Of a DNA stretch of 64,000 bases, positions 45,135 through 63,351 are shown one piece after another (within the stretch, counting starts at the first letter, position 1; the number at the start of each line of letters is the position of its first letter). Under the pieces are notes generated by a model that worked only from the letters and a program-made list of their open reading frames with translations, did no database searches and was not told the DNA's origin. The stretch is taken from the NCBI RefSeq assembly GCF_002310495.1, contig NZ_CP023344.1, forward strand, positions 1,674,001-1,738,000, in the 5' to 3' direction. Position numbers and translations under genes: made by a program. This DNA comes from Nibricoccus aquaticus. GTDB lineage: Bacteria; Verrucomicrobiota; Verrucomicrobiia; Opitutales; Opitutaceae.

Positions 45135-48100
45135 GTGGCGGTCCTCAGCCACGGCCGCTCCAGTGGCTTAACTCCCCCACCCCTCTCCGTGCTCCGATTT
45201 CTCCCATGCCTGGTCCGCCTGCTCGTATTCACTTTCTCGTGCTTGGGCGCGTGCGCCGCAGCGACTGAGCCACAGCACAATGCTCCGTCCGAGTATACGC
45301 TGCGCGCGTGGCATGCTTCCGACGGCCTGCCTTCCGACGAGATCGGCAGCCTGATGTTGGATGAAAAAGGCTATCTCTGGGTGGCGACCACGGGCGGGCT
45401 TGTGCGTTTCGACGGCACGAGCTTCGAGCCGGCGGAAACTCCCCCGGAAGTTTCCCAGCGCGGCATGATCCACCCCTCGATGCCACCCGCAGACGCACCG
45501 GGCCGCCTGCTCGCGCTGGGCAACGCCAACGGCAACACCGACGGCAACACCCCGGGCGCGGTCGATGGCGTTTACCGGCGCGATCATCAGGCCTTCGTCT
45601 TCGAGCGGGAGCCCGCGCTCGAAGGGAAAAACGTGCGCGCTATTTTCTCCGAGAAAAACGGCACGCTCTGGTTCGGCTGCGAAGACGGCACCGTGCTGCG
45701 AAGGGCGGACGGGCAATCGCAACGATTCGATCCACCCGCCGGACTCACCGGCCGGAAAATCCCCGCCTTCGCGACTGATGGCGCAGGACATGTCTGGGTC
45801 GCCATCAACACGCTTGTCGCGCGTTTCGACGGCACGCGATGGATTCCCCTCCCGGTCGATCATGCCAGCAACGAAGTCCGCATCGCCTCCAGCCGCTCAG
45901 GCGGTCCGTGGCTGTTCACCACCGAAGCCGCGATGAAATGGACCGGCGAAAAACTGGAGTTGATCGCGCCACTGTCGGAGTTGCAGGGATCGCACTTCAT
46001 TCAGGCGGCCATCGAAGATCGCTACGGGAAAATCTGGATCGGCACGCGCTCGCACGGACTTTTCCGGATTTCACCCGGGCAGGTTCTCGCCGTGCCCACG
46101 TCGCATGAGGACATCTATTCGCTCTGCGAAGATGCCGACGGCGGCATCTGGGCGGGCACCAACGGCGGCGGCCTCAACCGGCTGCGACCCAAAGCATATC
46201 AACTCTTCGACAAGGACAGCGGCCTCAAAGACAACTTCAGCTCCACGGTCGCCGAGGACGCCAACGGCGTGATCTGGCTCGCCAATCGCGATGGCGGCGT
46301 GGTGCGCGTCATCGACAGCAAGGCCGATCTTATCTCGCGCCGGCTGAACTGGCGGCAATTCAGCGCCATGTCGGTTTATCCTGCGGCCAACGGCAGCGTC
46401 TGGATCACCAGCGGCATCGGCGTGTACCGCACCAACGCCACCTACCCCGACCGCCTCGACCGTATCCGCTCGCTCGATAACTTCAAACTCGTGCGGGCCA
46501 CCTATGTCGCGCGCAACGGCGATTACTGGCTCTCCGTCGATCCCGACTCCATCGCGCGCTGGCGGGATAATGACGTCCGCGTTTTCTCCACCAATGACGG
46601 CTTCGACGGCCGAGAAGTGCGCGGCTTCGCCGAAGATGCCTCTGGCGCGCTTTGGGTGGGCGCAGCCGATGGACGGTTGTTTCGCTCCGTCGGCGAACGC
46701 TTCGAGCGCGTGCCACTTCCCGGCGCAGAGGACTGCGGCTCATTGCAGGCACTGCGCTTCGAAGCAGACGGCACGCTGCTTATCGCGACCACCTCGAGCG
46801 GCGTGCTCATTGTGAAACCCGATGCGACGCCTCATGTGCGCACGCTCGGGACCGCTCAGGGACTGCCCAACAACAACGTGACACAGATCCTCACCGATGA
46901 TTCCGGCCGCTACTGGTTCGCCTCGAGGCGTGGCATCTTTCGGATTGATCGCGATCAGCTGCGCGATTTCGCCAGCGGCAAAATCCAAAGCGTCCACACC
47001 GTCGTGCTGGGCAAAGACGACGGCCTCACCGATCTGTCCTCACTCGGCCTCTTCCAACCCTCCGCCTGGAAGGCGCGCGACGGCGGACTCTGGTTCGCCA
47101 CCCGGCGCGGCATGTTACGCCTTGATCCCTCCCTGACCTCGGACGACAGCGGCCCTCCACCCGTGACGCTCTCCGCCATTTCTTTCGACGACCGACCGCA
47201 GCCGCTCGCCAGCAACATCGCGATCCCCTCCAGCGTCAGGAAAACCGAGATACGCTTCTCCGCCCTCAATCTCTCCGCACCCGACCAGATCCTCGTCCGC
47301 CACCGGCTCGATGGATTCGACAACGACTGGGTCGTGCAGACCTCGGGCCGCAGCGCCACTTATCCACGGCTGCCTCCGGGCAAATACATGTTTCGCGTGG
47401 AAGCGAGCAACGGCAGCGGAGTCTGGAGTACGCAGGACACCGTGCTGCCCATCTCCGTCGTCCCGCTCTGGTGGCAGAGCGATTGGGCCAATGTCCTTTA
47501 TTTCGCCGCGCTCACGCTGGTGATCTTCGCCTGCGTGCGCATCTGGGCTCATCGCCGGTTGCGCCGCCGCCTCGAAGGACTCGAGCGCGAGCGCGCCATC
47601 GAGCGAGAGCGCACTCGCATCGCGCAAAACATCCACGACGATCTCGGCGCCAGCCTCACGCACATCAGCCTGCTCACGCAGCTCGCCCAGCATGAAAATC
47701 CGGAGCAGGCCCGCAGCTTCGAAAAAATCTACGACGCCGCCAACGCCATCACCCGCTCCATGGACGAGATTGTCTGGGCGGTTAACCCGAAGTGCGATGA
47801 CCTCGAGAGCCTCGTCTATTACGTCGGGAATTTCGCCCAGAGTTTTTTCAAAGCCGCCGAGATCCGCTGCCGTCTCGATGTGCCCGCCGTGCTTCCCGCC
47901 GTGAGCCTCACCAGCCAAGCGCGTCACAATCTTTTCCTCTGCTGCAAAGAAGCGCTCAACAACATCGCCCGCCACGCGCACGCGACGGAAGCCGAACTCA
48001 CTATCGCGGTGAACGAGTCCTCGCTCCAGATCACCATCGCCGACAACGGCCGCGGCCTGGCGGCATCGAAGCTCGCCCAGAGCATCGACCCGTTCCGCGT

Positions 48101-48233
48101 CTCGTCCGGCAACGGTTTGAAAAATATCCGCCAGCGCATCGAAGAACTCGACGGCACCTGCGGCTTCACCGAGCGCCCCGGCGGCGGCACACTTGTCACT
48201 TTCCTGATCGTCCTGCCAAAACTGCAAAATTGA
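45135..48233 (+). CDS. Two-propeller (Reg_prop/Y_Y_Y) sensor histidine kinase
   Basis: The protein has up to 1032 aa. The start is uncertain: GTG 45135, or GTG 45189 which opens directly into the signal peptide LRFLPCLVRLLVFTFS. A periplasmic sensor of Reg_prop beta-propeller repeats (about 50-680, units such as GYLWVATTGGLVRFDG and GGIWAGTNGGGLNRL) is followed by a Y_Y_Y domain (about 690-775), one membrane span (near 786-804), the H-box RTRIAQNIHDDLGASLTHIS (His near 833, HisKA_3 type) and a HATPase domain (about 934-1028). This is the architecture used by Bacteroides for polysaccharide sensing, but with a separate response regulator. Its neighbours suggest it senses pectin fragments. Confidence 0.9.
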   Translation: MAVLSHGRSSGLTPPPLSVLRFLPCLVRLLVFTFSCLGACAAATEPQHNAPSEYTLRAWHASDGLPSDEIGSLMLDEKGYLWVATTGGLVRFDGTSFEPAETPPEVSQRGMIHPSMPPADAPGRLLALGNANGNTDGNTPGAVDGVYRRDHQAFVFEREPALEGKNVRAIFSEKNGTLWFGCEDGTVLRRADGQSQRFDPPAGLTGRKIPAFATDGAGHVWVAINTLVARFDGTRWIPLPVDHASNEVRIASSRSGGPWLFTTEAAMKWTGEKLELIAPLSELQGSHFIQAAIEDRYGKIWIGTRSHGLFRISPGQVLAVPTSHEDIYSLCEDADGGIWAGTNGGGLNRLRPKAYQLFDKDSGLKDNFSSTVAEDANGVIWLANRDGGVVRVIDSKADLISRRLNWRQFSAMSVYPAANGSVWITSGIGVYRTNATYPDRLDRIRSLDNFKLVRATYVARNGDYWLSVDPDSIARWRDNDVRVFSTNDGFDGREVRGFAEDASGALWVGAADGRLFRSVGERFERVPLPGAEDCGSLQALRFEADGTLLIATTSSGVLIVKPDATPHVRTLGTAQGLPNNNVTQILTDDSGRYWFASRRGIFRIDRDQLRDFASGKIQSVHTVVLGKDDGLTDLSSLGLFQPSAWKARDGGLWFATRRGMLRLDPSLTSDDSGPPPVTLSAISFDDRPQPLASNIAIPSSVRKTEIRFSALNLSAPDQILVRHRLDGFDNDWVVQTSGRSATYPRLPPGKYMFRVEASNGSGVWSTQDTVLPISVVPLWWQSDWANVLYFAALTLVIFACVRIWAHRRLRRRLEGLERERAIERERTRIAQNIHDDLGASLTHISLLTQLAQHENPEQARSFEKIYDAANAITRSMDEIVWAVNPKCDDLESLVYYVGNFAQSFFKAAEIRCRLDVPAVLPAVSLTSQARHNLFLCCKEALNNIARHAHATEAELTIAVNESSLQITIADNGRGLAASKLAQSIDPFRVSSGNGLKNIRQRIEELDGTCGFTERPGGGTLVTFLIVLPKLQN

Positions 48234-48276
48234 GAAACCTCCCCGCACCTCCCACGGTCACCGCTTCCCCGCACCC

Positions 48277-48912
48277 ATGAAAACCCGTATTTCGATCATC
48301 GAAGACGACGGCCCCACGCGCCAGATCCTGACCGAGATCATCGCGAGCACTCCCACCCTCGAACTCGTGAGCCAGTATGAGCGGTGCGCTCCCGCGATCA
48401 AAGCCCTCCCGGAGGAAGGCCCAGATGTAGTGCTCGTGGACATCAATCTCCCCGAGATGAACGGCGTCGATGCGGTCAAACAGTTGAAGGTGTCCATGCC
48501 CAACACGCAGTTTCTCATGCTCACGGTCTATGAAGACGCCGACCACATCTTCGCCGCTCTCGCTGCCGGAGCGACGGGCTATCTTTTGAAAGGGACGCGC
48601 CGCAAAGAATTGCTCGAAGCGATCACCGACATCCGCGTTGGCGGCTCGCCGATGAGCAGCGGCATCGCGCGCAAAGTCGTGCAGTCGTTTTCGCGCTCCG
48701 GCAGCTCAACAACCGGACGTTCCGAGCTGGATACCCTTTCGCCACGCGAGCAATCCGTCCTCGCCCTGCTCACGAAAGGCTATCTCTACAAGGAGATCGC
48801 CGACTCGCTCGGCGTGAGCGGCCCGACCGTGACGACTTACATCCGCCGCATTTACGAAAAACTCCAGGTCCACTCCCGCACGCAGGCGATCACGAAGTAC
48901 CTGCAAAAATAA
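48277..48912 (+). CDS. NarL/LuxR-family response regulator
   Basis: The protein has 211 aa. The receiver domain has the acidic pair Asp10/Asp11, phosphoacceptor Asp55 (VVLVDINLPEMNG) and conserved Lys in GYLLKGT. The C-terminal HTH (about 148-210, LSPREQSVLALLTKGYLYKE) is a LuxR-type DNA-binding domain. The start is ATG 48277, 43 bp after the kinase stop; HisKA_3 kinases pair with NarL-type regulators, so this is almost certainly its partner. A terminator closes the two-gene operon. Confidence 0.95.
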   Translation: MKTRISIIEDDGPTRQILTEIIASTPTLELVSQYERCAPAIKALPEEGPDVVLVDINLPEMNGVDAVKQLKVSMPNTQFLMLTVYEDADHIFAALAAGATGYLLKGTRRKELLEAITDIRVGGSPMSSGIARKVVQSFSRSGSSTTGRSELDTLSPREQSVLALLTKGYLYKEIADSLGVSGPTVTTYIRRIYEKLQVHSRTQAITKYLQK

Positions 48913-49028: not shown

Positions 49029-50138
49029 TTAGAACAACTTGAACGCATCCATCGACCACAGGGCCTTCCCAGTGAAGTCGAAGAGCGCCTGGTTTTCCCA
49101 GTTGTTGCCCGAGCTGGCGTTGATGTTGTCCCAGCCGTTACCGGTGACCGGAGTCCACGTGCCTTCCCAGTAGATCACGCCCGCGCCGCGGTTATTCGGG
49201 ACCGAGTTCACGATGGTGCAGATTTTTTTGATCATGTCGTACTGGCCCTGAAGCGTCGCCGGATAACCGCTCACCAGCTGCGACGAGAGCCCGATGTTGT
49301 TCGCCGCACTGTCACCAGCGGCGAGCGTGAACGGGTAGGCAGTCTCGACGACGAGCACCGGCTTCGCGAAACGGCTCGCCGCATTATTGAGCGCTGTCTG
49401 GAGCGAGGTGAGACTGCCGTGCCAGTACGGGTAATAGGAAACGCCGGTGTAATCCCACGCGATGCCCTGCGCCTTCACGTTATCGAACCACCACTTGATC
49501 AACTCCCAGTCGCCGCCCTTCGCGATGTGCAGCACGATCGCCGTCGAGGAGTTGGCTGCCTTCGCGCCGTTGATGCCCGAGCGGAGCAGCTGGCACAGGT
49601 TGGTGAAGTTATAGTTCACCGAAGACAGTCGGCCCTCGTTCCACAACAGGCCGTCGTTGATCTCGTTTCCGATCTGCACGTAGTCGGCGGGCGTGCCCTG
49701 GTTGGCGAGGGCTTTGCAGATGTCGTACGTGTGATTGTACACCGCCGTATTGAGCGCGCTGAGATTATAGCTGCTCCACGCCGATGGCTTCGTCTGCTTG
49801 CCCGGATCGGCCCATGTGTCGGAGTAGTGGAAATCAACCAGGATCTTCTGGCCAAAACTCTTCGCGCGCTTCGCCACCGCGAGCACGCGGGCCTTGTTGT
49901 GATAACCGTCGGGCGAGTTGACCCAGACTTTGAGGCGAACGGTGTTCACACCGCCGTCGCGCAGGATTTTCAAAGCGTCGTCCTGATAACCGGACGCGTA
50001 GAAGTATTTGCCGCCTTTGTCTTCGCTCTTCTTCAGCGAAGAAACGTCGCAGCCTTTGATCCAGATGGCCGCGTGGGCCGACGAAACGAGCGCAGCCGCG
50101 AGCAACGCGGCGAGGGGTATGAGACGGGGTAGTTTCAT
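49029..50138 (-). CDS. GH53 arabinogalactan endo-beta-1,4-galactanase
   Basis: The protein has 369 aa from ATG 50138, which opens a signal peptide (cleavage near AHA-A, residue 22). The GH53 barrel shows KGCDVSSLKKSE near the start, VRLKVWVNSP, DFHYSDTWADPGKQ, the acid/base Glu in QIGNEINDGLLW near 160, and the nucleophile Glu in VVETAYPF near 264. It cuts beta-1,4-galactan side chains of rhamnogalacturonan I, outside the cell or in the periplasm. It follows the GH2 gene by 59 bp and appears to be co-transcribed. A paralogue lies at 58269-59396. Confidence 0.95.
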   Translation of the reverse strand: MKLPRLIPLAALLAAALVSSAHAAIWIKGCDVSSLKKSEDKGGKYFYASGYQDDALKILRDGGVNTVRLKVWVNSPDGYHNKARVLAVAKRAKSFGQKILVDFHYSDTWADPGKQTKPSAWSSYNLSALNTAVYNHTYDICKALANQGTPADYVQIGNEINDGLLWNEGRLSSVNYNFTNLCQLLRSGINGAKAANSSTAIVLHIAKGGDWELIKWWFDNVKAQGIAWDYTGVSYYPYWHGSLTSLQTALNNAASRFAKPVLVVETAYPFTLAAGDSAANNIGLSSQLVSGYPATLQGQYDMIKKICTIVNSVPNNRGAGVIYWEGTWTPVTGNGWDNINASSGNNWENQALFDFTGKALWSMDAFKLF

Positions 50139-52582: not shown

Positions 52583-52601
52583 GTTTTATCATTTAGTAAA
52601 C
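52583..52601. promoter_or_regulatory. Candidate LacI operator upstream of GH2
   Basis: GTTTTATCATTTAGTAAAC lies in an AT-rich island 67-85 bp upstream of the GH2 start. It matches 14 of 19 positions of the perfect palindrome at 59449-59467 upstream of the other transcription unit of this locus. An overlapping dyad AGTAAA-CTCT-TTTACT (52595-52610) is also present. Confidence 0.6.
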
Positions 52602-52678
52602 TCTTTTACTCGATGGCGCGAGGCGGTGCTTGATTGGAAGGACGGTCGCGCGCGGATGTCGGTGTTCGCCGGTGATCG

Positions 52679-53665
52679 TTATGACACCGAGTCGCGTTCG
52701 ATCAGGCGGACGGGCAGGCTGACCTGACGGTTTTGCAGGCGCTCGCCGGACGTCAGCGAATCCATCATGACGACCGCCTGCTCGGCCATTTCGCGGAGCG
52801 GCTCTTCGATCGTGGTGAGCGGCGGATTTTGGATGATCGAGATGCCTTCGTTTTCACCGCCGATGAGCGAGATGTCCTGCGGTACTTTGAGGCCCATCAC
52901 GTAGGTCAGGATGTGGAGACACTCCATTGCCTGGAAGCTCGTGCCCGGCGCGTAGATACTGTCGGCACCGGCGCGCACGATGCGCGTGACGGCGGAGAAA
53001 TGATTCACACCCGGGGCCATCGGCAGGAGCAGGCGGTCGTCGGCGGGCACCTTGGCCTCGGCGAGGGCTTTGCGAAAACCTTTCAGCCGCTCCAGAAACG
53101 GCGGAGCGTCGCCACCCATAAAGGCGAGCTTGCGCTTGCCACGCGCGAGCAAGTGCTTCGCGGCGAGATAGCCGGAGCTGAAGTGATCGGAGCAGACGGT
53201 AAGCTGGCGCGACTCGGCGTCGAATTTGTCCATGTACACGACCGGCAGACGCGTCTCGAGCTCGGCGAGCATCGAGCGGAGTCCTTTGTCGAACGTGACC
53301 GCGATGATGCCATCGAGAAATGCTCCGGGCAGTTGCTCGAAGGGATTCGACGGCAGGAGCACACCGATATTTTTGCGCGAGAACTCAAACGCGAGATGCG
53401 CCGTCAGCGTCGCAGCGTAGCCCTCAATGCGATCAGTGAACGTCGGCTCCGAAAGAATCGCGATCTGACGCGTGCGCACGGAGACCTGCGGCTTGAGATT
53501 GAGCTCCTTCGCGGCGCGCAGGATGCGTTCGCGTGTCTCGGGCTTCACCTTGTCGCGGTTGTTGAGCACGCGGCTGACCGTGCCGGGCGAGACATCGGCC
53601 AGGCGGGCGAGATCGTAGATCGTGGCTTTCTTTCCGGTGCGTGGCGAAGGCTGCGAGCGGCTCAT
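52679..53665 (-). CDS. LacI-family regulator of the galactan locus
   Basis: The protein has 328 aa from ATG 53665. The HTH (TIYDLARLADVSPGTVSRVLNN) and hinge are at the N terminus, followed by a ligand-binding domain (HLLARGKRKLAFMGGDAPP, GGENEGISIIQNPPLTTI). ATG 53734 is an alternative start only 4 bp from the stop of the transporter gene; it would add a 23-residue unstructured tail. It is last gene of the GH53-TBDR-GPH-LacI unit, so probably autoregulated. It likely binds galactose or a galacto-oligosaccharide and represses both units through the 19-bp dyads (inference). Confidence 0.9.
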   Translation of the reverse strand: MSRSQPSPRTGKKATIYDLARLADVSPGTVSRVLNNRDKVKPETRERILRAAKELNLKPQVSVRTRQIAILSEPTFTDRIEGYAATLTAHLAFEFSRKNIGVLLPSNPFEQLPGAFLDGIIAVTFDKGLRSMLAELETRLPVVYMDKFDAESRQLTVCSDHFSSGYLAAKHLLARGKRKLAFMGGDAPPFLERLKGFRKALAEAKVPADDRLLLPMAPGVNHFSAVTRIVRAGADSIYAPGTSFQAMECLHILTYVMGLKVPQDISLIGGENEGISIIQNPPLTTIEEPLREMAEQAVVMMDSLTSGERLQNRQVSLPVRLIERDSVS

Positions 53666-53738
53666 GCCGCCACCATGAACTGCGCGCGCGGGAGGCGGCG
53701 ATTTTTTTGTGGAATCTGATGGCTGGTAAGTCATGCGG

Positions 53739-55217
53739 TCAGACAGCGCCCCGGCGGGCTTCCAGTTGGGCACGGGTTTCGTGCGCGCGTTTGCGATCAA
53801 GCGGGTAGGTCATAAGCAGGGCGATGGCGACCACCGCCCACAGCGCTGTCGATCCGGCGAGAATCGTCCGGAGGCGGAAAATCGTCTCAGGCGCCTGCTG
53901 GCCGCCGAGTGCGGCGTCGAATCCAGTAAGCTTCAGCGACAGCATCGCTCCAAAAAACGCAGCGGAGTAACCCATCTTCTGAATCCACGAAAAGATCGCT
54001 CCGAACACGCCTTCACGGCGGAAGCCGTTGCGCAGTTCATCCTCGTCGCAGATGTCGGCGAGCATGGCGGGCGTGAGGATGTTGATGGCGATCCAGACCG
54101 GTCCACAGAGCATCGCGTCGAAGATGATTTTCCACGTGTGCCCGGGCGTGAAGAGAAACCATTTACCCGCCGCACCGACGGCCGTGAGTAAAAACGCGGC
54201 GATGATCGCGCGGCGCTTTCCCCATTTCTGCGCGGCCCAAGTCACCGGAAGGATCGCCGCGAATCCGACAATCGCATACGATGACGATAACCACGCCTTC
54301 AGCGTTTCCCCGGCCTGAACGTTGCCGTCGCTCATGTAGTAAACGAGCAGGTAGCGGTCGAGGTTGCTGGCAAACATGCCCGCCACGATCTGGAGCAATG
54401 TCAGCGCGACGAGGATTTGAAAAGCCCGGATGCGAAACGCGCTCCAGATCGCCGAGCCGATCTTCACCTTCGCCTGCTCAGCCGCACGATGGAAGAAACG
54501 TTCGCGCACGAAAAGCGCGGGCAACAATCCACAAAGTCCGAGCAGCAAAATCGCCACGCCCCAACCGACGGTGCGCACACCTACGACGATCGTCGCGAAC
54601 AACGCCGCCGAACTCGCGAGCGGGAAGAGCCAGTTGTAGCCGAGTTCACCGACCTTGCCGAAAAATCCGCTCACCGCCGAGACCCGCGTCCGCTCGTCGT
54701 AGTCCGGCGTGATTTCGTATTGGAGCGCCGTCAGCGGCACCGAATAGAGAGAGAATCCCGCGTAGAAAATCACCTGCGTGACCACGAGCCAGGCAGTGAG
54801 CGACAGCTGATCCCACGTCGGCGGCACCATCCAGATGAGACCAAACGCCAGCGCCTGAAGCACCGCACCGATGGCGATCAGCGGCCGGCGGCGGCCGAAG
54901 CGCGATTGCAGGTTGTCAGAAAACTGGCCGACCAGCGGATCAACGAACGCATCCAGAAAACGGGGAATCGCCAGCGCAGCGGCGAGCCACGCGGGATCGA
55001 GTTTCAGCGTCATTTGATAAAACGGGATCGCAAAACTGCCGATCGCCGCCGTGCCGAGAAACAGCGACAAACCACCCGCGCCCAACGCCATCTTCTCGCC
55101 CCAGCCGACACGATCCTCCGCGCGGATCGCTTGTGCAGACGGCGCTCCGGCAGGGCTCGCGGTGTTCGTCGTGGCGGAAGAATCGGCGTCGGGTTTCACG
55201 ATGAAAAAAGCGGGCAC
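53739..55217 (-). CDS. GPH-family sugar:cation symporter
   Basis: The protein has 492 aa. The start is uncertain: GTG 55217 or GTG 55199. About 12 membrane segments are present, with the GPH signature region AIPRFLDAFVDPLVGQFSDN followed by RFGRRRPLI. The middle loop carries FVRERFFHRAAEQAKVKIG. It belongs to the MelB/LacS-like group that moves galactosides with H+ or Na+. Placed 33 bp downstream of the TonB receptor and upstream of the LacI gene, it probably imports galacto-oligosaccharides from periplasm to cytoplasm (inference). Confidence 0.88.
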   Translation of the reverse strand: MPAFFIVKPDADSSATTNTASPAGAPSAQAIRAEDRVGWGEKMALGAGGLSLFLGTAAIGSFAIPFYQMTLKLDPAWLAAALAIPRFLDAFVDPLVGQFSDNLQSRFGRRRPLIAIGAVLQALAFGLIWMVPPTWDQLSLTAWLVVTQVIFYAGFSLYSVPLTALQYEITPDYDERTRVSAVSGFFGKVGELGYNWLFPLASSAALFATIVVGVRTVGWGVAILLLGLCGLLPALFVRERFFHRAAEQAKVKIGSAIWSAFRIRAFQILVALTLLQIVAGMFASNLDRYLLVYYMSDGNVQAGETLKAWLSSSYAIVGFAAILPVTWAAQKWGKRRAIIAAFLLTAVGAAGKWFLFTPGHTWKIIFDAMLCGPVWIAINILTPAMLADICDEDELRNGFRREGVFGAIFSWIQKMGYSAAFFGAMLSLKLTGFDAALGGQQAPETIFRLRTILAGSTALWAVVAIALLMTYPLDRKRAHETRAQLEARRGAV

Positions 55218-55250
55218 CCGCGGCTCGATGCCGGAGCGCCCGCGAACGGG

Positions 55251-58223
55251 TTAGAAATGCAGCGTCGCCGAGAATGTGACTTTGCGCGGTTCCTGCAGAC
55301 CGATGCGCTCAGGGCGACGCGTGACTTGATTGCCCGCCACCTCGGCCCACCACGTGAGCGAGTAGATCTGGGAATCTTTTTCATCGAGCACATTGGCGAC
55401 GTTGAGCTGGAGATCGACCCATGAACCTTTGCCGATGAACTCCGTCTTGAAGTTATAGCCGATGCTCGCGTCGGCGAGTGTCAGACTTCGGCCATAAAAA
55501 ACGGTGGGATTATATTTCATGTCGAGCGTGTTGTCGTACATGCCGAGCACGTTCTTGCTCTGATAGCGACCGCCGCCGCCGATGGAGAAGTTCTTCAGCG
55601 CGCCACGATCAAACGTGTACTTCGTATAGAGATTCGCGCCGTACTTGCGCTGACCGCGGGCATTGTGGCCATCGAGGGCGACGACGTTGTCGATGGCGTA
55701 CTGGTTCATCCAGCGAACCTGGTTGCCGAGATTATCCCATGAGGCGTCGCCCAAGGCACCCGTCGGGAATGCATTCCCCGCATACGCACCGGAAGTCGGG
55801 ATCTTAGAGCGCCAGAAGGCTTCGTTCGCAACGGCCCACGCCTTCACCTCGGCCATGGAGTTGCGAGCGACGACGTTGTTGATCGAGAAATTCGCCGACA
55901 CGCGCCAGTTGCTCCTTGGATTGGCGACGAGGGAAAGTTCCCAACCGCTGCTGTCGCGGTCGAACATGAAGCCGTTGGCATTCACCAGGCGGGCGTTGTA
56001 CTCGGCGGCGGTTATGAGCGGCGTCGCGGAGACGGATGGATCGGGGTTGCGCAGCGCGTTCAGAATTTTCGTATTCCGGTCCGAAACATCTGTGCGGATG
56101 GAGCCCCAGTCGGTCATGTGCTTGGTCTCGGCCTTATAGTAGCCGATCGTCGCGTAGAGTTTGCCTTCGAGCAGATCGAGTTTGATGCCGACATCGCCAC
56201 CTTTGCTCTCGGGCATGGGCGGAATGTCATTATTGATAAGACGAATCCGCACCTCGGGAAGATCGCGGCTGGTCGCCACGTTGCCATAGACGGACAGCCA
56301 CTTGGTGGTGTGGTACACGGCTCCCCCACTCAGCGTGGTGGCATTGAAATCCTTCGTTTTATTATCGGCCGGATGCAGCGCCCAGAGCGCATTCACGTAC
56401 CGGCCGTCGTTGTAATCATGCTCCATCTTGTCGCCACGCAGACCGACAATCGTCACCAGCTTTTCCTTCAAGAAGAAGCTCTGCACGGCGACCATGCCGG
56501 TGGCCAGCCGGCTCTCCGTATCCTCCAGCGGCTGGGTCGGAACCCAGCGGGTGCCGGGGACCACTTTGCGCCAGGACTGCACGTGGATGTCGCTAGCATC
56601 GCCACCAGTGAAATAATGACGGCGATAAAGGCGGTTCACATCCGCCTCGGCTGCGGAAGGATCGAAAGCCCACTGCGTCAAATCGGAAAAAGCCTCGGTC
56701 TCCTCGATGCGATTAAACGTGCGCACGTTGTAGCTGAGCAAACCAGCCGCACGGTGGCGGGCCCAGTCGCCGGTCGTAAAGGTGTACGCCATCGTGCCGC
56801 GAAACTCGGTTGAATCGATTTTCTGGGTACGGCGTGTCCAGTTGTTCTCCACGTAGAGTTTGCCCGCGTTGGGATTCGCCCCCGCGGCGTTGCCCCATTG
56901 ATCGGGCAGATCGGCGCTCGCCTCGCCCCAGATCTCGCTGCTGTTGCCGAAGTAAGTAGTGGCGCGGCTGCCATCTGGATCATAGCCGAGGAAATCCATG
57001 GTCTGGTGGTTGAACGCCAGCTCGTAGAAGAGCGAGTCGCTCACCTTGCTTTCGAAAAACGCGCTGACGGTTTTGTAGTCTGTTTCGCGCGTGGCATCAG
57101 GACCACCGGTGTTGGCGTGACGCGGGATGAGGCTGTTGTTCGCAGGCGTGTCAGCCCAGGCCGACCACGTGGGACGTGCCCAATCATCCGTCGCGCCGAT
57201 GTCTCGATAGCGATCAGTCAGGAAAGCGCCGTCGATATTGTTGCTGCCCTGCGCGCGGCCGAGCCAGTTGCGCACGACACCGTCGTCGCCGACGACACGG
57301 TGATCGGGCCAGAACGTGTCGATCGTGTCGGCCCACGGCCACGCACCGGAGAACGTCGGGCGGCCGGCTTCACGCCAGCGAAACGACTGGTCAATCGCGA
57401 GCCAGGGACGGGCGACGTTGTCCTTCACCTTGCCGATTTCGCCCTCGACGCGGAGGGTCGAGTCTTTGGTCGGCTGCCATTTCGTGGCAATGTGCGCGCG
57501 GCGCGATTGATCGAATTCGAATTCGCGCCAGCTCTTGCCGTTTTCGGCCATCGCATTGACGCGCATGGCGAGCTGTCCGGCGATCAGCGGGACATTGGCG
57601 TCGAGCGTGCCGCGATGGCGGTCCCAGCTGCCAGCGGTGTAAGAGAGCTCATACTTGTTCGCGTTGAGCAACGCCTGCTTGGTCGAGGTGTTGACGAGAC
57701 CGCCGGGCGCGCCAAAGCCGAAGAGAATGGAGTTGGGTCCGCGCGTCTGGTCGATGCGGTCAACGTTGTAGAAATCAGTCGAGGCGTCCCATTTGAAAAA
57801 ATTGCGCGCGTAGCTGGCCGGGAGTCCGCGAATACGCAGCTGCCACTCGCCGTTACCGATCATGGGATTGCCGTTGATGCTGAGCGCAGCGTCGCCGACA
57901 TCGGGCACGGCGTTGTTCGTGAATAAAATCACATCCTGCATGTTCGTCGCGCCGATGTCCTTCAGGAACTCAGGCGTCAGCACAGAGATCGCCGCACCTG
58001 TGTCCTTTAGGGACGTGTTGAGGCGACTGCCGGCGAGCGTGTTGCCAGCGAGATAGCCAACGTCTTTCTTGGTGCTCACTTCGAAGGGGCTGAGGACGAT
58101 GACCTCATCGTCGGCTGGCGTGACAGCGGGCTCGGTCGGGGCGGTTTGCGCGAGCGCGTGGGGCAGTGCATAAAGGCCGCAGGCGAGGCTGATCGCGGCG
58201 GCCGTCAGGGGTGGGGTTCTCAT
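55251..58223 (-). CDS. TonB-dependent receptor of the galactan locus
   Basis: The protein has 990 aa. Signal peptide ends near ALA-Q (residue 25). DEVIVLSPFEV near 39-49 is a probable TonB box, almost the same as that of the receptor at 16181-19879. The plug domain follows (SRLNTSLKDTGAAISVLTPEFL, VDRIDQTRGPNSILFGFGAPGG) and the beta barrel ends in FSATLHF with a terminal Phe. It should import galactan oligosaccharides across the outer membrane. There is no SusD homologue. It begins 46 bp after the stop of the GH53 gene, so the four genes form one operon. Confidence 0.92.
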   Translation of the reverse strand: MRTPPLTAAAISLACGLYALPHALAQTAPTEPAVTPADDEVIVLSPFEVSTKKDVGYLAGNTLAGSRLNTSLKDTGAAISVLTPEFLKDIGATNMQDVILFTNNAVPDVGDAALSINGNPMIGNGEWQLRIRGLPASYARNFFKWDASTDFYNVDRIDQTRGPNSILFGFGAPGGLVNTSTKQALLNANKYELSYTAGSWDRHRGTLDANVPLIAGQLAMRVNAMAENGKSWREFEFDQSRRAHIATKWQPTKDSTLRVEGEIGKVKDNVARPWLAIDQSFRWREAGRPTFSGAWPWADTIDTFWPDHRVVGDDGVVRNWLGRAQGSNNIDGAFLTDRYRDIGATDDWARPTWSAWADTPANNSLIPRHANTGGPDATRETDYKTVSAFFESKVSDSLFYELAFNHQTMDFLGYDPDGSRATTYFGNSSEIWGEASADLPDQWGNAAGANPNAGKLYVENNWTRRTQKIDSTEFRGTMAYTFTTGDWARHRAAGLLSYNVRTFNRIEETEAFSDLTQWAFDPSAAEADVNRLYRRHYFTGGDASDIHVQSWRKVVPGTRWVPTQPLEDTESRLATGMVAVQSFFLKEKLVTIVGLRGDKMEHDYNDGRYVNALWALHPADNKTKDFNATTLSGGAVYHTTKWLSVYGNVATSRDLPEVRIRLINNDIPPMPESKGGDVGIKLDLLEGKLYATIGYYKAETKHMTDWGSIRTDVSDRNTKILNALRNPDPSVSATPLITAAEYNARLVNANGFMFDRDSSGWELSLVANPRSNWRVSANFSINNVVARNSMAEVKAWAVANEAFWRSKIPTSGAYAGNAFPTGALGDASWDNLGNQVRWMNQYAIDNVVALDGHNARGQRKYGANLYTKYTFDRGALKNFSIGGGGRYQSKNVLGMYDNTLDMKYNPTVFYGRSLTLADASIGYNFKTEFIGKGSWVDLQLNVANVLDEKDSQIYSLTWWAEVAGNQVTRRPERIGLQEPRKVTFSATLHF

Positions 58224-58268
58224 GGTGGCTGGTGTGGTTTGGCTGACTGGGAAAATTGAAAAATGCGC

Positions 58269-59396
58269 TCAGCGCGCTGGCGTGGTGCAGAAAATTTTGG
58301 CCGCTGGCAGAAGCGCACCCGCGCCATCGAAGAGCGCGCACGAACCGCCGAGCCAGGCTTGGAGCCCTTGAACTTCCACCGACTCCGGATGCCACCAGCA
58401 GACACCGGCACCAAGTCCATCTGGCAGATCACGAACCGCTTGGTTTACCTCTGACAGAAACTGTTTCTGGCCATCGGGTGTCAGCGGCCAGTCGAGATTC
58501 TTTTTCCCTTCCCAGTGTGAGTCCAGCTTCCACGGATACGCTGTCTCGACGACCATCACGGGCTTCTTGAATCCCTCTGCGACTGCCGTGAGTGTTTCCC
58601 TAAGAGAGGCGATTCCTCCATGCCACTCGGGGTAATAGCTCAGCCCGACAATATCGAAAGGCAGGCCCGCATCGCTCGCGTGCTTCAACCACCAGCTCGT
58701 GCGGGCCACATCCCCCGTGCTCTCGATATGCACGATGGTCTTCGGCCGCGGGATTTTCGCTGACACCACCGCAGCCTCGAAGCCCTCAAACCCGGCGCGC
58801 AGCACACGCGCAAGCCGCACCCATGCCTCAAAATCATGCGCCTCGCGAAACTCCACGCGCCCGTCCGGCCAGAGCAGGCCGTTGGTGATCTCATTTCCGA
58901 TCTGCACGTACTCAGGCGTGAGTCCCTCGGCGATAAACCGCGCCAGCGTCAGCCGTGTGTACTCGCGCACCGCGCCGACCAGTTCGTCGAAAGGCAGCTT
59001 TTCCCACGCCGCAGGCTTAAACTGCTTTGCCGGATCGGCCCACGTGTCGGAGTAGTGCAGATCGAGCATGAACCTCGCGCCACTTGCCTTAACCCGTCGT
59101 GCGAGCGCGAGCGTATACTCCAGATCGTTGGTCACGATACCCTGGTGATCTGGCGCGACAAACAACCGCAGGCGGAAACAATCAAAGCCCGCACTGCGCA
59201 ACTGTTTCAATCCGTCCACCGGGCCTGTCTCGCCGCGAAAAACCGCTCCACGCGCCTCAACCACCGCCAGTGCAGAAATGTCGGCCCCGCTAACAAAGCC
59301 CACCGTCATCCCTGCCGGACTCATCGCCTGCGCATCGGCGAAAGCCGGAGACAGCAAAAACAAACAGGCGGCGACGAAAGCAGTCGTGCGAATCAT
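58269..59396 (-). CDS. GH53 endo-beta-1,4-galactanase, second copy
   Basis: The protein has 375 aa. The signal peptide ends near DAQA (residue 24). GH53 motifs are GADISALAVVEARG, FRLRLFVAP, DLHYSDTWADPAKQ, acid/base Glu in QIGNEITNGLLW near 169, and nucleophile Glu in VVETAYPWKL near 285. It is clearly diverged from the copy at 49029-50138, so the two may cut different chain lengths or branched galactan. First gene of the GH53-receptor-GPH-LacI operon; the candidate operator lies 53-71 bp upstream. Confidence 0.95.
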   Translation of the reverse strand: MIRTTAFVAACLFLLSPAFADAQAMSPAGMTVGFVSGADISALAVVEARGAVFRGETGPVDGLKQLRSAGFDCFRLRLFVAPDHQGIVTNDLEYTLALARRVKASGARFMLDLHYSDTWADPAKQFKPAAWEKLPFDELVGAVREYTRLTLARFIAEGLTPEYVQIGNEITNGLLWPDGRVEFREAHDFEAWVRLARVLRAGFEGFEAAVVSAKIPRPKTIVHIESTGDVARTSWWLKHASDAGLPFDIVGLSYYPEWHGGIASLRETLTAVAEGFKKPVMVVETAYPWKLDSHWEGKKNLDWPLTPDGQKQFLSEVNQAVRDLPDGLGAGVCWWHPESVEVQGLQAWLGGSCALFDGAGALLPAAKIFCTTPAR

Positions 59397-59448
59397 GGGG
59401 CAGGCAGGGGTGAATCCACAGATGAAAGCCCGATGTGTTATTTCAAGA

Positions 59449-59467
59449 GTTTTATTTTTAATAAAAC
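59449..59467. promoter_or_regulatory. Perfect palindromic candidate LacI operator upstream of GH53
   Basis: GTTTTATTTTTAATAAAAC is a perfect inverted repeat (GTTTTATT/AATAAAAC) with a TTT centre, 53-71 bp upstream of the GH53 start. It lies within an AT-rich island in an otherwise GC-rich window. It is similar to the site upstream of GH2. Confidence 0.65.
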
Positions 59468-59555
59468 AGTTTCATAAAAAGTCTCCATACGCCTCATCGC
59501 CTATTTACAGTGTGCCTCACTCAGGACGCCCACGCATTTACGCAGGCTGCGGCAT

Positions 59556-59607: not shown

Positions 59608-62600
59608 ATGAATTTCCCCGCCACCGCCGGAGTGCGCCGGTCGTTATTGCTCACTGTTTTTGTCGCCGCCGTCGGCATCACCACTTCGACCATCCTCTGG
59701 CTGCGCGAACGCGAGCACATCCAGCGCGACGAAACCCAGGATCTCGCCCTGTTAGCCACCCGCATCACCGACGAGCTCCGCGTGCGCCTCGCTCAGATCG
59801 ACAGCACTCTGCAAGGCCTGCGCGGACTCTACGCCGCGCAAGGCGGCCTCGATCACGCCAGTTGGGAAACCTACCTCAACGAGCTCAACCCTTCACCCCC
59901 GCCCGGCCTCAACGGCTTTAATTACATCCGCCACGTTTCCCCGGAAACACTGCCCGCCTTCCTGGATGAAGCGCATCTCCGCTTCGCGCCAGATTTCAAA
60001 ATCCAAGTCACTGAAACCGCAGCGGAAATGGCCATCGTTTCCCTCCAGCGCGACTACTTGAACCGAGGCCTCTCGCTGGGCGCCGACCGCAGCACCCGCA
60101 CCGACTGGATGATCAGCGCCGATCTCGCTCGCCGCACCGGCGCCACCACGATGAGCCAGCCCACCGCAGCGCTCAGCGGCGACGGCTCGCTCCGGTTCTT
60201 CGTCACCATGCCGCTCTACCGCATCGGCGTGCCTGTGAACTCCGAGAGCGCCCGCCTCGCCGCTCATCACGGCTGGCTCACCGCAGGCCTGCGACCGAGC
60301 GCATTTTTCGAATACCTCGACAGCCAGATTGGCCGCACACTACGGCTCGAGGTGACCGACATCGCACCCGACGGCACAACAAAACGCCTGCACCTCTCCT
60401 CGCCAGGCGAAAAACTCCCCGCCAACACCATCACCTCCACGCTCACTGTCCCGATCATGGACCGCACGTGGCGCGTCGATCTCACCGCTCCTCCAGGCCC
60501 GCTCGCCAGCAGCCGCTACGCCCTCGCCGGCCAGCTCTTCGTCGGCGGCCTCATCGCCACCGGACTGCTCACCGCCCTCCTCTGGAATCTCCGCCGCACC
60601 CAGCGCGAAGCCATCCGCCTCGCCCGGGAAATGACCCGTGAGGTCAAGGAACGCGAATGGATGCTCATCCAGGCCCAGCGCATCGCCAACATCGGCATGT
60701 GCTACCTGGATACACGCACCCAGAAAGTCGTCCGCTCCGCCGAGTACCTGCGCATCTTCGGCATCCAGGCCGATCAAAGCATGGTCGGCGGCGCCACCGA
60801 CGATCTCCTCGACCGCGTACACCCCGAAGACCGCCCCGCCGCCGCAGCCGCCATCACCGCATTCAAAGCCGGTCAACCCGCCCCGCCCCGCATCATCCGC
60901 ATCCGCACCCCCGACCGCGGCGAACGCACTCTCCTCGGCGAACAAGGCGTCCTCCCCTCCCCCTCCGGCAAAGCCGATCTCGTCGTCGCCGTCATCCACG
61001 ACATCACCGAACGCCTCGCCACCGACCGCGCCCTCGCCGATAGCCACGCCCGCCTCGACCGCCTGATCCAGGTGCTCCCCGGCACCGTGTATCAACTCCG
61101 TCGCGACTCCAGCGGCACGCTCACCCTCCCATTCCTCAGCGAAGGTGCCAGCCAGCTCTTCGGCCTGCCCGCCGCCGAACTCGCCGCCAGCCCCGCCCGC
61201 CTCCTCGCCCTCTTCCCCGCCGATCAAGCCGCGCTCCTCCAGCGCAGCCTCGACCAGTCCGCCGCCACCCTCGCCGGCTGGCAGCTCGACGCCTCCTTCC
61301 AGCCTCCCGGCGGCGGCCGCCGCTGGGTCCGCTTCAATGCCATCCCCGAGGCCACCCCCGGCGGCGCGATCGTCTGGCACGGCGTCGCCACCGACATCTC
61401 CCTCGCCAAGGAAGCCGAGCACCGCCTCCGCTTCACCCAGTACGCCGTCGATCACATGCGCGATGCCGTCGCCTTCCTCACCGCCGACGGCGACCGCATC
61501 TACGTCAACGACGAGACGTGCCGACTAACCGGATACGACCGCGCCGAACTCGTCGGTGCCAAGGTCTGGAATACCTTCACCTCTATCACCCCCGCCCGCT
61601 ACCAGCAGCTCTGGGCGCACGTCAAACAACGCGGCACCTACCTCTTCGAGTCCTCCCTCATCAGCAAATCCGGCGAGACCGTTCCCGTCGAAGTCGGCGC
61701 CAGCTACATCGACTTCGGCGGCCTCGAAATCGTCTTCGCCATCGCCCGCGACATCACCGCCCGCAAAGCCTCCGAACAAGCCCTCCGCGACAGCGAGGAA
61801 CGCCTCCGCCTCACCCGCCACGCCCTCGACCTCGCCCAGGACATCGTCTCCATCATGGACGCCGACGGCAACCGCCTCTACGTCAACGAAACCTTCTGCC
61901 GCTTCACCGGCCGCACCCGCGACGAGATCTTCTCCACCAAAGTCTGGGAGACCAATCCGCCCCTCAACGAACCCCGCTACCGCGCCCTCTGGGAAGACGT
62001 CCGCCGCCGCGGCACCATGAGCTTCGACCTCGAAATGCTCTCCAGCACCGGCGAACACCTCCCCATCGAGGTCAACGCCAGCTTCCTCACCTTCGACGGC
62101 CGCGAAGCCGTCTGCACCATCTCCCGCGACCTCGGCCCCCGCCGCGCCGCCGAAGCCGAGAAAAAGCGCATGGAGGAACAACTCCGCGAAACTCAAAAAC
62201 TCGAAAGCCTCGGCGTCCTCGCCGGCGGCATCGCCCACGATTTCAACAACCTGCTAACCGGCATCCTCGGTCACGCCAGCCTCGCCCGCGACCGCCTCCC
62301 CGACGGCCACGAGATGCACGAATCCCTCTCGCAAATCGAGCAATCCTCCACCCGCGCCGCCGAACTCTGCCAGCAGATGCTCGCCTACGCCGGCAAGGGC
62401 CGCTTCATCGTCGGCGCCGTCGACCTCAGCAAACTCGTCGGCGACACCGCCAAACTCCTCGACGTCTCCATCGAGCACCGCGCCGCCCTCACGCTCAACC
62501 TCGCGCAAAATCTGCCCGCCGTCCTCGCCGACGCCACGCAGATGCGCCAGATCGTCATGAACCTCGTGCTCAACGCCGCCGAAGCCGTCACCCCCGACAC

Positions 62601-63351
62601 CGGCCGCATCGTTGTCACCACCGGACGGATGCACGTGGACGCCGCCTTCCTCGCCTCCGCCCGCGTCGCCGCCGGCCTCCGCCACGGCGAAGCCGTCTTC
62701 CTCGAAGTCACCGACAACGGCTGCGGCATGGACCCCGCCACCCTCGAACGCATCTTCGATCCCTTCTTCACCACCAAATTCACTGGCCGCGGCCTCGGCC
62801 TCGCCGCCGTTCAAGGCATAGTCCGCTCCCACGAAGGCGCCCTCCACGTCCACAGCTCACCCGGCGGCGGCACCACCTTCCGCCTCGTGCTTGCTCCCTA
62901 CACCGGCAGCAAAGCCCGCACCATGCCCCCCTTCGCTCCCGCGCGAAACAGCCGCCCGCCCATCGCCAGCGGACGCGTCCTCGTCGTCGATGACGAAGAA
63001 AGCGTCCGCTCCGTCACCCGCCAAGTCCTCGAACGCACCGGCTTCACCGTCGAACTCGCCGAAGACGGCGAAAGCGCCCTCGAACACCTCAAAAGAAGCC
63101 CCTCCGATTTCACCCTCATCCTCCTCGATTTCACCATGCCCCGCCTCGACGGCGCGCAAACCCTCCGCGAAATCCTCCAGATCCATCCCAACGCCCGCGT
63201 GATGATGATGAGCGGCTTCTCCGAAACCGAAGCCCGTCAACGCCTCGGCGACCTAGCCATCGTCGGCTTCATCCAAAAGCCCTTCGACTTCCCCACCCTC
63301 CGCACCCGCGTCGAACAAGTCCTCCAACTCGACCCCGCCTCGCAGATATAG
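59608..63351 (+). CDS. CHASE/4xPAS hybrid histidine kinase
   Basis: The protein has 1247 aa from ATG 59608, which opens into the first membrane segment (LLLTVFVAAVGITTSTILWL). A periplasmic CHASE sensor lies at about 55-265. A second membrane segment (about 300-327) leads to four PAS domains (350-470, 485-598, 611-718, 734-845). The H-box LAGGIAHDFNNLLTGILG (His near 875), HATPase (970-1094, DNGCGMDP, GRGLGLAAVQGI) and a C-terminal receiver (LILLDFTMPRLDG, Asp near 1172) follow. No output domain is fused, and no partner regulator is adjacent. It is divergent from the galactan operon; a functional link is not shown. Alternative start ATG 59554. Confidence 0.92.
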   Translation: MNFPATAGVRRSLLLTVFVAAVGITTSTILWLREREHIQRDETQDLALLATRITDELRVRLAQIDSTLQGLRGLYAAQGGLDHASWETYLNELNPSPPPGLNGFNYIRHVSPETLPAFLDEAHLRFAPDFKIQVTETAAEMAIVSLQRDYLNRGLSLGADRSTRTDWMISADLARRTGATTMSQPTAALSGDGSLRFFVTMPLYRIGVPVNSESARLAAHHGWLTAGLRPSAFFEYLDSQIGRTLRLEVTDIAPDGTTKRLHLSSPGEKLPANTITSTLTVPIMDRTWRVDLTAPPGPLASSRYALAGQLFVGGLIATGLLTALLWNLRRTQREAIRLAREMTREVKEREWMLIQAQRIANIGMCYLDTRTQKVVRSAEYLRIFGIQADQSMVGGATDDLLDRVHPEDRPAAAAAITAFKAGQPAPPRIIRIRTPDRGERTLLGEQGVLPSPSGKADLVVAVIHDITERLATDRALADSHARLDRLIQVLPGTVYQLRRDSSGTLTLPFLSEGASQLFGLPAAELAASPARLLALFPADQAALLQRSLDQSAATLAGWQLDASFQPPGGGRRWVRFNAIPEATPGGAIVWHGVATDISLAKEAEHRLRFTQYAVDHMRDAVAFLTADGDRIYVNDETCRLTGYDRAELVGAKVWNTFTSITPARYQQLWAHVKQRGTYLFESSLISKSGETVPVEVGASYIDFGGLEIVFAIARDITARKASEQALRDSEERLRLTRHALDLAQDIVSIMDADGNRLYVNETFCRFTGRTRDEIFSTKVWETNPPLNEPRYRALWEDVRRRGTMSFDLEMLSSTGEHLPIEVNASFLTFDGREAVCTISRDLGPRRAAEAEKKRMEEQLRETQKLESLGVLAGGIAHDFNNLLTGILGHASLARDRLPDGHEMHESLSQIEQSSTRAAELCQQMLAYAGKGRFIVGAVDLSKLVGDTAKLLDVSIEHRAALTLNLAQNLPAVLADATQMRQIVMNLVLNAAEAVTPDTGRIVVTTGRMHVDAAFLASARVAAGLRHGEAVFLEVTDNGCGMDPATLERIFDPFFTTKFTGRGLGLAAVQGIVRSHEGALHVHSSPGGGTTFRLVLAPYTGSKARTMPPFAPARNSRPPIASGRVLVVDDEESVRSVTRQVLERTGFTVELAEDGESALEHLKRSPSDFTLILLDFTMPRLDGAQTLREILQIHPNARVMMMSGFSETEARQRLGDLAIVGFIQKPFDFPTLRTRVEQVLQLDPASQI

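What the first reader, a model, noticed from the sequence alone, without database searches (positions are those of the whole stretch)
52583..59467. Same 19-bp candidate operator before both galactan transcription units
GTTTTATTTTTAATAAAAC (59449) is a perfect palindrome; GTTTTATCATTTAGTAAAC (52583) matches it at 14 of 19 positions. Both sit 53-85 bp before the first gene of a unit, in AT-rich islands, in a locus containing a LacI gene. I found no further match by eye elsewhere in the window. This defines a testable regulon.
Basis: partly seen in the sequence, partly recalled or inferred. Interest (0 to 1): 0.6.

Follow-up and report, generated by a model that had tools for sequence, protein, structure and literature searches.

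The report
Tandem operators of a galactan LacI regulator

Summary
The two 19-mers exist as described, except that the "perfect palindrome" is two 8-bp arms around TTT; their 14/19 likeness alone is weak. Relatives show that the sites are genuine but probably misframed. The conserved element is an odd palindrome, RTAAAAC-W-GTTTTAY, with a further ATAAAAC half-site 20 bp on, which in 11 of 22 aligned sites is followed 2 nt later by a -35-like TTGA. In the 4.73-Mb genome the exact core TNAAACWGTTTNA occurs twice: at site a, and 1.9 Mb away before another GH53 galactanase gene. The genome has three GH53 genes; the remaining one lies behind GH2, after site b. None of 124 family genomes without a close LacI relative has the exact three-half-site pattern; 7 of 26 with one do, but six of those seven helped to shape the pattern. 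The layout resembles Bacillus subtilis GanR. The LacI protein lacks about six hinge residues, its operator lacks the central CG, yet it lacks the EbgR-type insertion. Best reading: local, autoregulated repressor of galactan use; a new variant of a known kind. Binding, inducer and sign of control are untested.

The parts
59460..59476 (-). Operator 1 of site a: TATGAAAC-T-GTTTTATT (core TGAAACTGTTTTA at 59462-59474)
   Evidence: One of two exact TNAAACWGTTTNA places in the genome; convergent pair found upstream of the first gene in 13 of 14 orthologous units
59449..59455 (-). Third half-site ATAAAAC (left half of a second operator, 20 bp on)
   Evidence: Tandem period 20 in 7 of 37 regions with exact half-sites, 17 of 37 with one mismatch
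59441..59446 (-). -35-like element TTGAAA next to the third half-site
   Evidence: Coordinates; TTGA[C/A/G] exactly 2 nt after the third half-site in 11 of 22 aligned sites
59449..59467 (.).
52595..52610 (-). Site b operator AGTAAA-AGAG-TTTACT, exact match to the published GanR consensus AGTAAA-N4-TTTACT
   Evidence: Only exact AGTAAA-N3-7-TTTACT in the genome (the reversed control pattern also has one place); consensus from PMC5472308
52583..52589 (-). Third half-site ATAAAAC of site b
   Evidence: Same register as site a
52583..52601 (.).
52679..53665 (-). LacI-family regulator (328 aa) with shortened linker KPQVSVRTRQIAIL
   Evidence: Pfam; 6-residue gap against CcpA 2o20; shortest linker of the 20 LacI-type proteins of the genome in a MAFFT alignment
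58269..59396 (-). GH53 endo-galactanase (GH53a), first gene after site a
   Evidence: Pfam PF07745, E 5.2e-82
55251..58223 (-). TonB-dependent receptor
   Evidence: Pfam Plug; conserved neighbour in part of the relatives
53739..55199 (-). MFS_2 sugar transporter
   Evidence: Pfam PF13347
50198..52516 (-). GH2 glycosidase (probable beta-galactosidase, inferred from context), first gene after site b
   Evidence: Pfam GH2 domains
49029..50138 (-). GH53 endo-galactanase (GH53b), downstream of GH2
   Evidence: Pfam PF07745, E 5.9e-117

Best explanation
The sites are operators of the LacI-family protein encoded at 52679-53665. A dimer binds the odd palindrome RTAAAAC-W-GTTTTAY (relaxed at site b to AGTAAA-N4-TTTACT). 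A second dimer is recruited 20 bp away on the same face through the third half-site ATAAAAC, which at the main promoter abuts the -35 element. Without galactan breakdown products this blocks RNA polymerase at the GH53a-TBDT-MFS-LacI(-GH2-GH53b) unit, lowers GH2-GH53b expression at site b, and blocks a third, unlinked GH53 gene. A galacto-oligosaccharide, probably galactobiose, would release it, and LacI is autoregulated because its gene lies inside the unit. Shown here: motif, conservation, -35 register, the third target. Supported but not proven: the link to this LacI. Inferred: cooperativity, repression rather than activation, the inducer.
For: Exact TNAAACWGTTTNA occurs at 2 places in 4.73 Mb, both before GH53 genes 1.9 Mb apart; the genome has 3 GH53 genes, the remaining one behind GH2 after site b. 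The three-half-site pattern ranks sites a, b and c first (a 0 mismatches; b, c and the overlapping reverse hit of a 1 each; the next places have 2). In 14 of 14 first-gene upstream regions of orthologous units a pair of half-sites is found in one of the two registers, in 13 the convergent one. GH53 upstream scan on genes not used for training: 7 of 17 in LacI genomes, 1 of 25 in the others (Fisher P 0.004); 4 of the 10 misses in LacI genomes (L111, L132, L134, L137) are GH53 genes lying behind GH2 in the unit. The exact pattern is in 0 of 124 family genomes without a LacI relative at E<=1e-40, reversed control 0 of 150. TTGA[C/A/G] 2 nt after the third half-site in 11 of 22. [quoted passage not shown]
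Against: The co-occurrence with LacI is partly circular: 6 of the 7 positive genomes (6 of 8 places) were already known from LacI loci when the pattern was written, so its nominal P of 2.2e-6 is not a test; the two new places (G143:C16:8123, G011:C26:309618) have no identified galactan target. The half-site was learned from related loci and the score limit of the GH53 scan was set after seeing the scores. With one mismatch the 13-mer is no more frequent than its reversed control (21 against 22 places). Over 372 genomes of the order the exact pattern (12 places in 11 genomes) is below the control (19 places in 12 genomes, all of 2.3 Mb or less); of six places outside the family only one is a galactan locus, the same DNA as L054. 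G057 has a motif-bearing GH53 but no LacI relative at E<=1e-10, in a 91% complete draft. Site b has a 4-bp rather than 5-bp centre; 8 of 13 LacI-GH2 gaps show neither pair. No -10 box was recognised and the promoter scan finds nothing at either site. Family genomes are related, so P values overstate.
Confidence: 0.73

Rival explanations
1. The reader's divergent 19-mer GTTTTAT-n5-ATAAAAC is itself the dimer site.
For: A symmetric 19-bp element at site a. With one mismatch allowed, divergent pairs (gap 6 or 7) occur in 21 of 37 regions against 20 for the convergent pair, and three regions (L070, L059, L047) show only the divergent pair against two (L073, L077) with only the convergent one.
Against: With exact half-sites the convergent gap is always 1 (13 regions), the divergent gap 6 or 7 (3 and 5 regions). 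Site b matches the convergent GanR consensus exactly. Oppositely oriented repeats were not bound by GanR (PMC5472308).
Confidence: 0.2
2. LacI binds as an activator from upstream of the -35 rather than as a repressor.
For: The sites lie upstream of and abut the -35-like TTGA, a position open to activation.
Against: GanR with a like arrangement is a repressor (PMC5472308).
Confidence: 0.15
3. Another regulator binds the motif (the neighbouring two-component systems at 45153-48912 or 59608-63351, or another of the 20 LacI-type proteins of the genome).
For: Such genes are adjacent and 20 LacI HTH matches exist; G057 has the motif without a LacI relative.
Against: L058, L061, L054 and L055, which have the motif and the unit, show no tblastn match (E<=1e-15) to those kinases or the response regulator within the 17-19 kb fetched; L056 has a 31% response-regulator match far off. 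The LacI gene is the regulator kept in the unit.
Confidence: 0.12
4. The sites are only AT-rich promoter DNA that look alike by chance.
For: 14/19 similarity alone is near background; A/T runs.
Against: Conserved spacing, C and G anchor bases and the unlinked GH53 site.
Confidence: 0.03

Closest known systems
GanR of Bacillus subtilis (LacI-family repressor of the ganSPQAB galactan operon; PMC5472308, passages and section 21 read)
   Same: Galactan genes including a galactanase and a beta-galactosidase; convergent inverted repeats AGTAAA-(4-7 nt)-TTTACT, two copies immediately upstream of the -35, the last half-site overlapping it; site b matches the consensus exactly
   Different: Here a TonB receptor and an MFS transporter; the main operator is RTAAAAC-W-GTTTTAY with a central A or T; an unlinked GH53 target; orthology to GanR not tested (its protein sequence was not fetched)
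EbgR-like LacI-family subfamily (EbgR, LacR, GalR, RafR; PMC2329647, passages read)
   Same: No canonical hinge and no central CG in the operator; beta-galactoside genes; the E. coli ebgR-ebgA gap carries AGTAAATGCATTTACC and AGTAAAAATTTTACT
   Different: The window protein lacks the insertion before helix 3 (two-residue gap against EbgR, 26% identity); published EbgR-like sites are TTTA-C/G-TAAA with a single central C or G, here C-W-G
CcpA/RbsR-like LacI-family members
   Same: Best NCBIfam profile is RbsR (119.6 bits, far below its 382 cut-off) and best solved chain CcpA 2o20; the predicted L. sakei RbsR operator gTAAAA-CG-TTTTAc (PMC2329647) has the same half-site
   Different: An extra central base (CWG for CG) and about six residues missing from the hinge

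Membership tests
LacI/GalR transcription factor family | N-terminal LacI HTH plus periplasmic-binding-like effector domain | tested here: met
   PF00356 E 1.8e-16 and PF13377 E 2.3e-21
CcpA-like LacI subfamily | Hinge helix with conserved Ala and intercalating Leu | tested here: not met
   6-residue gap against CcpA 2o20 and, in a MAFFT alignment, 46 residues where the other 19 LacI-type proteins of the genome have 56-73 and EbgR 62. The PurR alignments run through the linker without that gap, and the structure model is too poor to judge
CcpA-like LacI subfamily | Central CG in an even operator | tested here: not met
   Predicted operator has C-W-G, or G-A-G at site b; binding untested
EbgR-like LacI subfamily | Insertion before helix 3 as described in PMC2329647 | tested here: not met
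   RVLNNRD--KVKPET against EbgR RVLNDDPTLNVKEET
EbgR-like LacI subfamily | Lacks the hinge Leu and the central CG | tested here: met
EbgR-like LacI subfamily | Single central C or G in the operator | tested here: not met
   Central base A in 11 and T in 11 of 22 sites, but these were picked by a core that asks for A or T; holds only if the convergent register is right
GanR-type galactan regulator | Convergent repeats AGTAAA-(4-7)-TTTACT next to the -35 of galactan genes | tested here: met
   Exact at site b, which however has no TTGA; site a as TGAAACTGTTTTA plus a third half-site at TTGAAA
GanR-type galactan regulator | Released by beta-1,4-galactobiose | not testable with these tools
   Needs protein and sugar
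GanR-type galactan regulator | Orthology to B. subtilis GanR | not tested
   GanR protein was not fetched

The most novel reading that the evidence does not exclude
A clade of Opitutaceae and related Opitutales LacI regulators has deleted the hinge helix from a CcpA/RbsR-like protein, and its operator changed in step: the RbsR-type half-site TAAAAC is kept but the central CG is opened to C-W-G. Affinity is restored by tandem binding at a 20-bp period that ends in the -35. [quoted passage not shown]
Probability: 0.35. Interest if true: 0.58.

Novelty: new variant of a known kind. Interest (0 to 1): 0.45.

Why it matters
It turns a two-site guess into a defined, testable regulon that would cover every GH53 gene of the genome, points to the bases that should be mutated, and offers a natural case where loss of the LacI hinge and loss of the central CG of the operator go together outside the EbgR-like group. 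The listings of my paper searches showed no described LacI regulon or operator for this bacterial group; that covers only the held open-access library and those terms.

Tried and rejected
Structure prediction of the LacI protein from 12 sequences gave mean pLDDT 52.5, and 24 for residues 61-70, so it says nothing about the hinge; no fold search was run. The sigma-70 scan found no promoter at either site (2 promoter-like matches in the region, 2.1 expected in shuffles). A GH53 cluster on an E. coli plasmid carries a LacI with a canonical hinge motif and only 2-mismatch AGTAAA-type matches, so it was dropped as a parallel; a Paenibacillus record had no annotated genes and no such motif. Loose motif searches (one mismatch in 13) were set aside because the reversed control is as frequent. 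The EbgR-type core TTTA-N-TAAA was considered: by eye it is in site b and some other sites but not in L058, L056, L119 or L060 (sequences). The co-occurrence P value was demoted on re-reading because the pattern had been written after seeing most of the positive genomes. On that re-reading the confidence of the best explanation went from 0.77 to 0.73, the divergent-site rival from 0.12 to 0.2 and the other-regulator rival from 0.1 to 0.12, because of the recount, that circularity and the G057 exception. Paper searches gave nothing relevant.

Full report
Setting. The window is G000:C1:1674001-1738000 of a 4.73-Mb single-contig genome. The named relatives of its LacI gene are MAGs and genomes of Opitutaceae and other Opitutales or Verrucomicrobia. 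Six genes lie in tandem on the minus strand: GH53a, TonB receptor, MFS_2 transporter, LacI, GH2, GH53b, with gaps of 45, 33, 73, 162 and 59 bp (the 33 uses the upstream GTG of the MFS ORF, the 59 the GH53b ATG at 50138). They could be one or two transcription units.

Observation. Site a is two 8-bp arms around TTT, not a perfect palindrome; site b is 12/19 self-complementary. Similarity alone is weak: five other places reach 13/19 to site a.

Phylogenetic footprint. LacI relatives were found in 26 of 150 family genomes at E<=1e-40, the window's own included, and in 11 named contigs. Many keep the order MFS-LacI-GH2, and five besides the window (L058, L061, L054, L055, L056) the full GH53-TBDT-MFS-LacI-GH2. 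The promoter in front of the first gene usually holds a good match.

Which dyad. 37 regions were taken by position, not by motif: 14 first-gene upstream regions, 13 LacI-GH2 gaps, 10 LacI upstream regions. Exact half-sites TNAAAC pair convergently only with a 1-bp gap (13 regions); divergent pairs have gaps of 6 or 7 (3 and 5 regions); tandem copies lie 19 or 20 apart (2 and 7 regions). With one mismatch the convergent pair is in 20 regions (13 first-gene, 3 GH2-gap, 4 LacI) and the divergent one in 21 (14, 5, 2). Two regions have only the convergent pair (L073, L077) and three only the divergent one (L070, L059, L047); 8 of 13 GH2 gaps and 6 of 10 LacI regions have neither. The regions come from related genomes and the half-site was learned from some of them, so these counts describe the architecture rather than test it blind. 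I favour the convergent dyad because its spacing is constant with exact half-sites, because site b fits the GanR consensus exactly, and because GanR did not bind repeats of the opposite orientation. TTGA[C/A/G] stands exactly 2 nt after the third half-site in 11 of 22 aligned sites, which were picked by the core. At site a it is TTGAAA, 59441-59446; sites b and c have none there.

Genome-wide. Exact TNAAACWGTTTNA: 2 places, site a and C1:3624402-3624414. With one mismatch there are 21 places against 22 for the reversed control, no excess. The three-half-site pattern with up to 3 mismatches has 15 places against 7 for the control; site a comes first (0), then b, c and the overlapping reverse hit of a (1 each); the next have 2. 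Site c lies upstream of an ORF whose product is the genome's best-scoring GH53. The genome has three GH53 genes: two have the site directly in front, the third lies behind GH2 after site b. Exact AGTAAA-N3-7-TTTACT occurs once, at 52595-52610; the reversed control also occurs once.

Link to LacI. The exact three-half-site pattern occurs in 7 of 150 family genomes (8 places), reversed control 0. All 7 are among the 26 LacI genomes, and none of the 124 others has it. This is partly circular: six of the seven genomes (six of the eight places) had been seen in LacI loci before the pattern was written, so the nominal hypergeometric value of 2.2e-6 is not a test. Five places are upstream of the conserved unit and one upstream of the LacI gene itself (G011). 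The two new ones (G011:309618, G143:8123) are on the same contig as LacI without an identified galactan target. A fairer test is the scan upstream of 47 GH53 genes (one more was too short; one gene held twice was counted once): 13 score above 16, a limit set after seeing the scores. Five belong to loci used for training. Of the 42 others, 7 of 17 in LacI genomes and 1 of 25 elsewhere hit (Fisher 0.004). Four of the ten misses in LacI genomes (L111, L132, L134, L137) lie behind GH2 inside the unit. The exception, G057, has no LacI relative at E<=1e-10 in a 91% complete, 430-contig draft. Across 372 genomes of the order (family members included) the pattern has 12 places in 11 genomes against 19 control places in 12 genomes of 2.3 Mb or less. 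Of the six places outside the family one is a galactan locus, the same DNA as L054.

Site b class. The LacI-GH2 gap site belongs to a minority: 5 of 13 gaps show a pair (window, L059, L063, L047, L050), and L060 a degenerate one. In five of these six the core reads [A/G]AAGA[C/G/A]TT rather than AAACWGTT. It may act as a weaker internal operator or a roadblock; this is inference.

The protein. In the 12 aligned relatives the stretch after the HTH is conserved around KPQ-x-S/A-x-R-x-R-Q/E. Against CcpA 2o20 there is a 6-residue gap in the hinge; the printed PurR alignments do not show that gap. In a MAFFT alignment with the other 19 LacI-type proteins of the genome and E. coli EbgR, the window protein and its relatives have 46 residues in a span where the others have 56-73 and EbgR 62. 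The best NCBIfam profile is RbsR, far below its cut-off; the predicted L. sakei RbsR operator gTAAAACGTTTTAc (PMC2329647, passages) has the same half-site with a CG centre. Francke and colleagues describe EbgR-like proteins as lacking the hinge Leu, having operators with a single central C or G, and an insertion before helix 3; the window protein lacks the insertion. Ravcheev and colleagues report odd palindromes for only 4% of LacI-family regulators and tandem sites with distance peaks at 13, 22 and 32 bp (PMC4052901, section 9); the 20-bp period here is near the second peak but not at it.

Nearest precedent. B. [quoted passage not shown] Two shifted bands were seen, galactobiose induces, and oppositely oriented repeats at yvaB are not bound (PMC5472308, passages and section 21).

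Verdict. It works like GanR; membership in GanR proper is untested, and it fits neither the CcpA-like nor the EbgR-like description fully.

Noticed in passing
G000:C1:3624402-3624414 (L096, L108): Third operator before an unlinked GH53 gene beside unrelated genes (urease-, DnaK- and GroEL-like ORFs by eye); the rest of that neighbourhood was not studied.
   Followed up: partly
window 45153-48912 and 59608-63351: A Reg_prop sensor kinase with LuxR-type response regulator and a CHASE/PAS hybrid kinase flank the galactan genes; their role is unknown.
   Followed up: no
G000:C1:1944998 and 2020004: Two places with TGAAACCGTTTCA, an odd palindrome with the same half-site but central C or G; possibly operators of a different LacI-type protein.
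   Followed up: no
L194 (E. coli K-12 ebgR-ebgA gap) 3022-3063: AGTAAATGCATTTACC and AGTAAAAATTTTACT lie in tandem upstream of ebgA, close to the GanR consensus.
   Followed up: partly
L072 (oriented) near 14355: A genome with a LacI relative (57% identity) has a motif match upstream of an ORF that looks like a GH28 pectinase by eye.
   Followed up: no
L115 (G057): A GH53 gene with a good operator in a draft genome without a detectable LacI relative.
   Followed up: partly
L198 (G183, same order): The exact three-half-site pattern lies just upstream of a different LacI-family gene (recognition segment KGTVSLALNDSPRVK).
   Followed up: no
L195 (NZ_AP027749.1): An E. coli IncHI1B plasmid carries a GH53 galactan cluster with its own canonical-hinge LacI regulator.
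   Followed up: no
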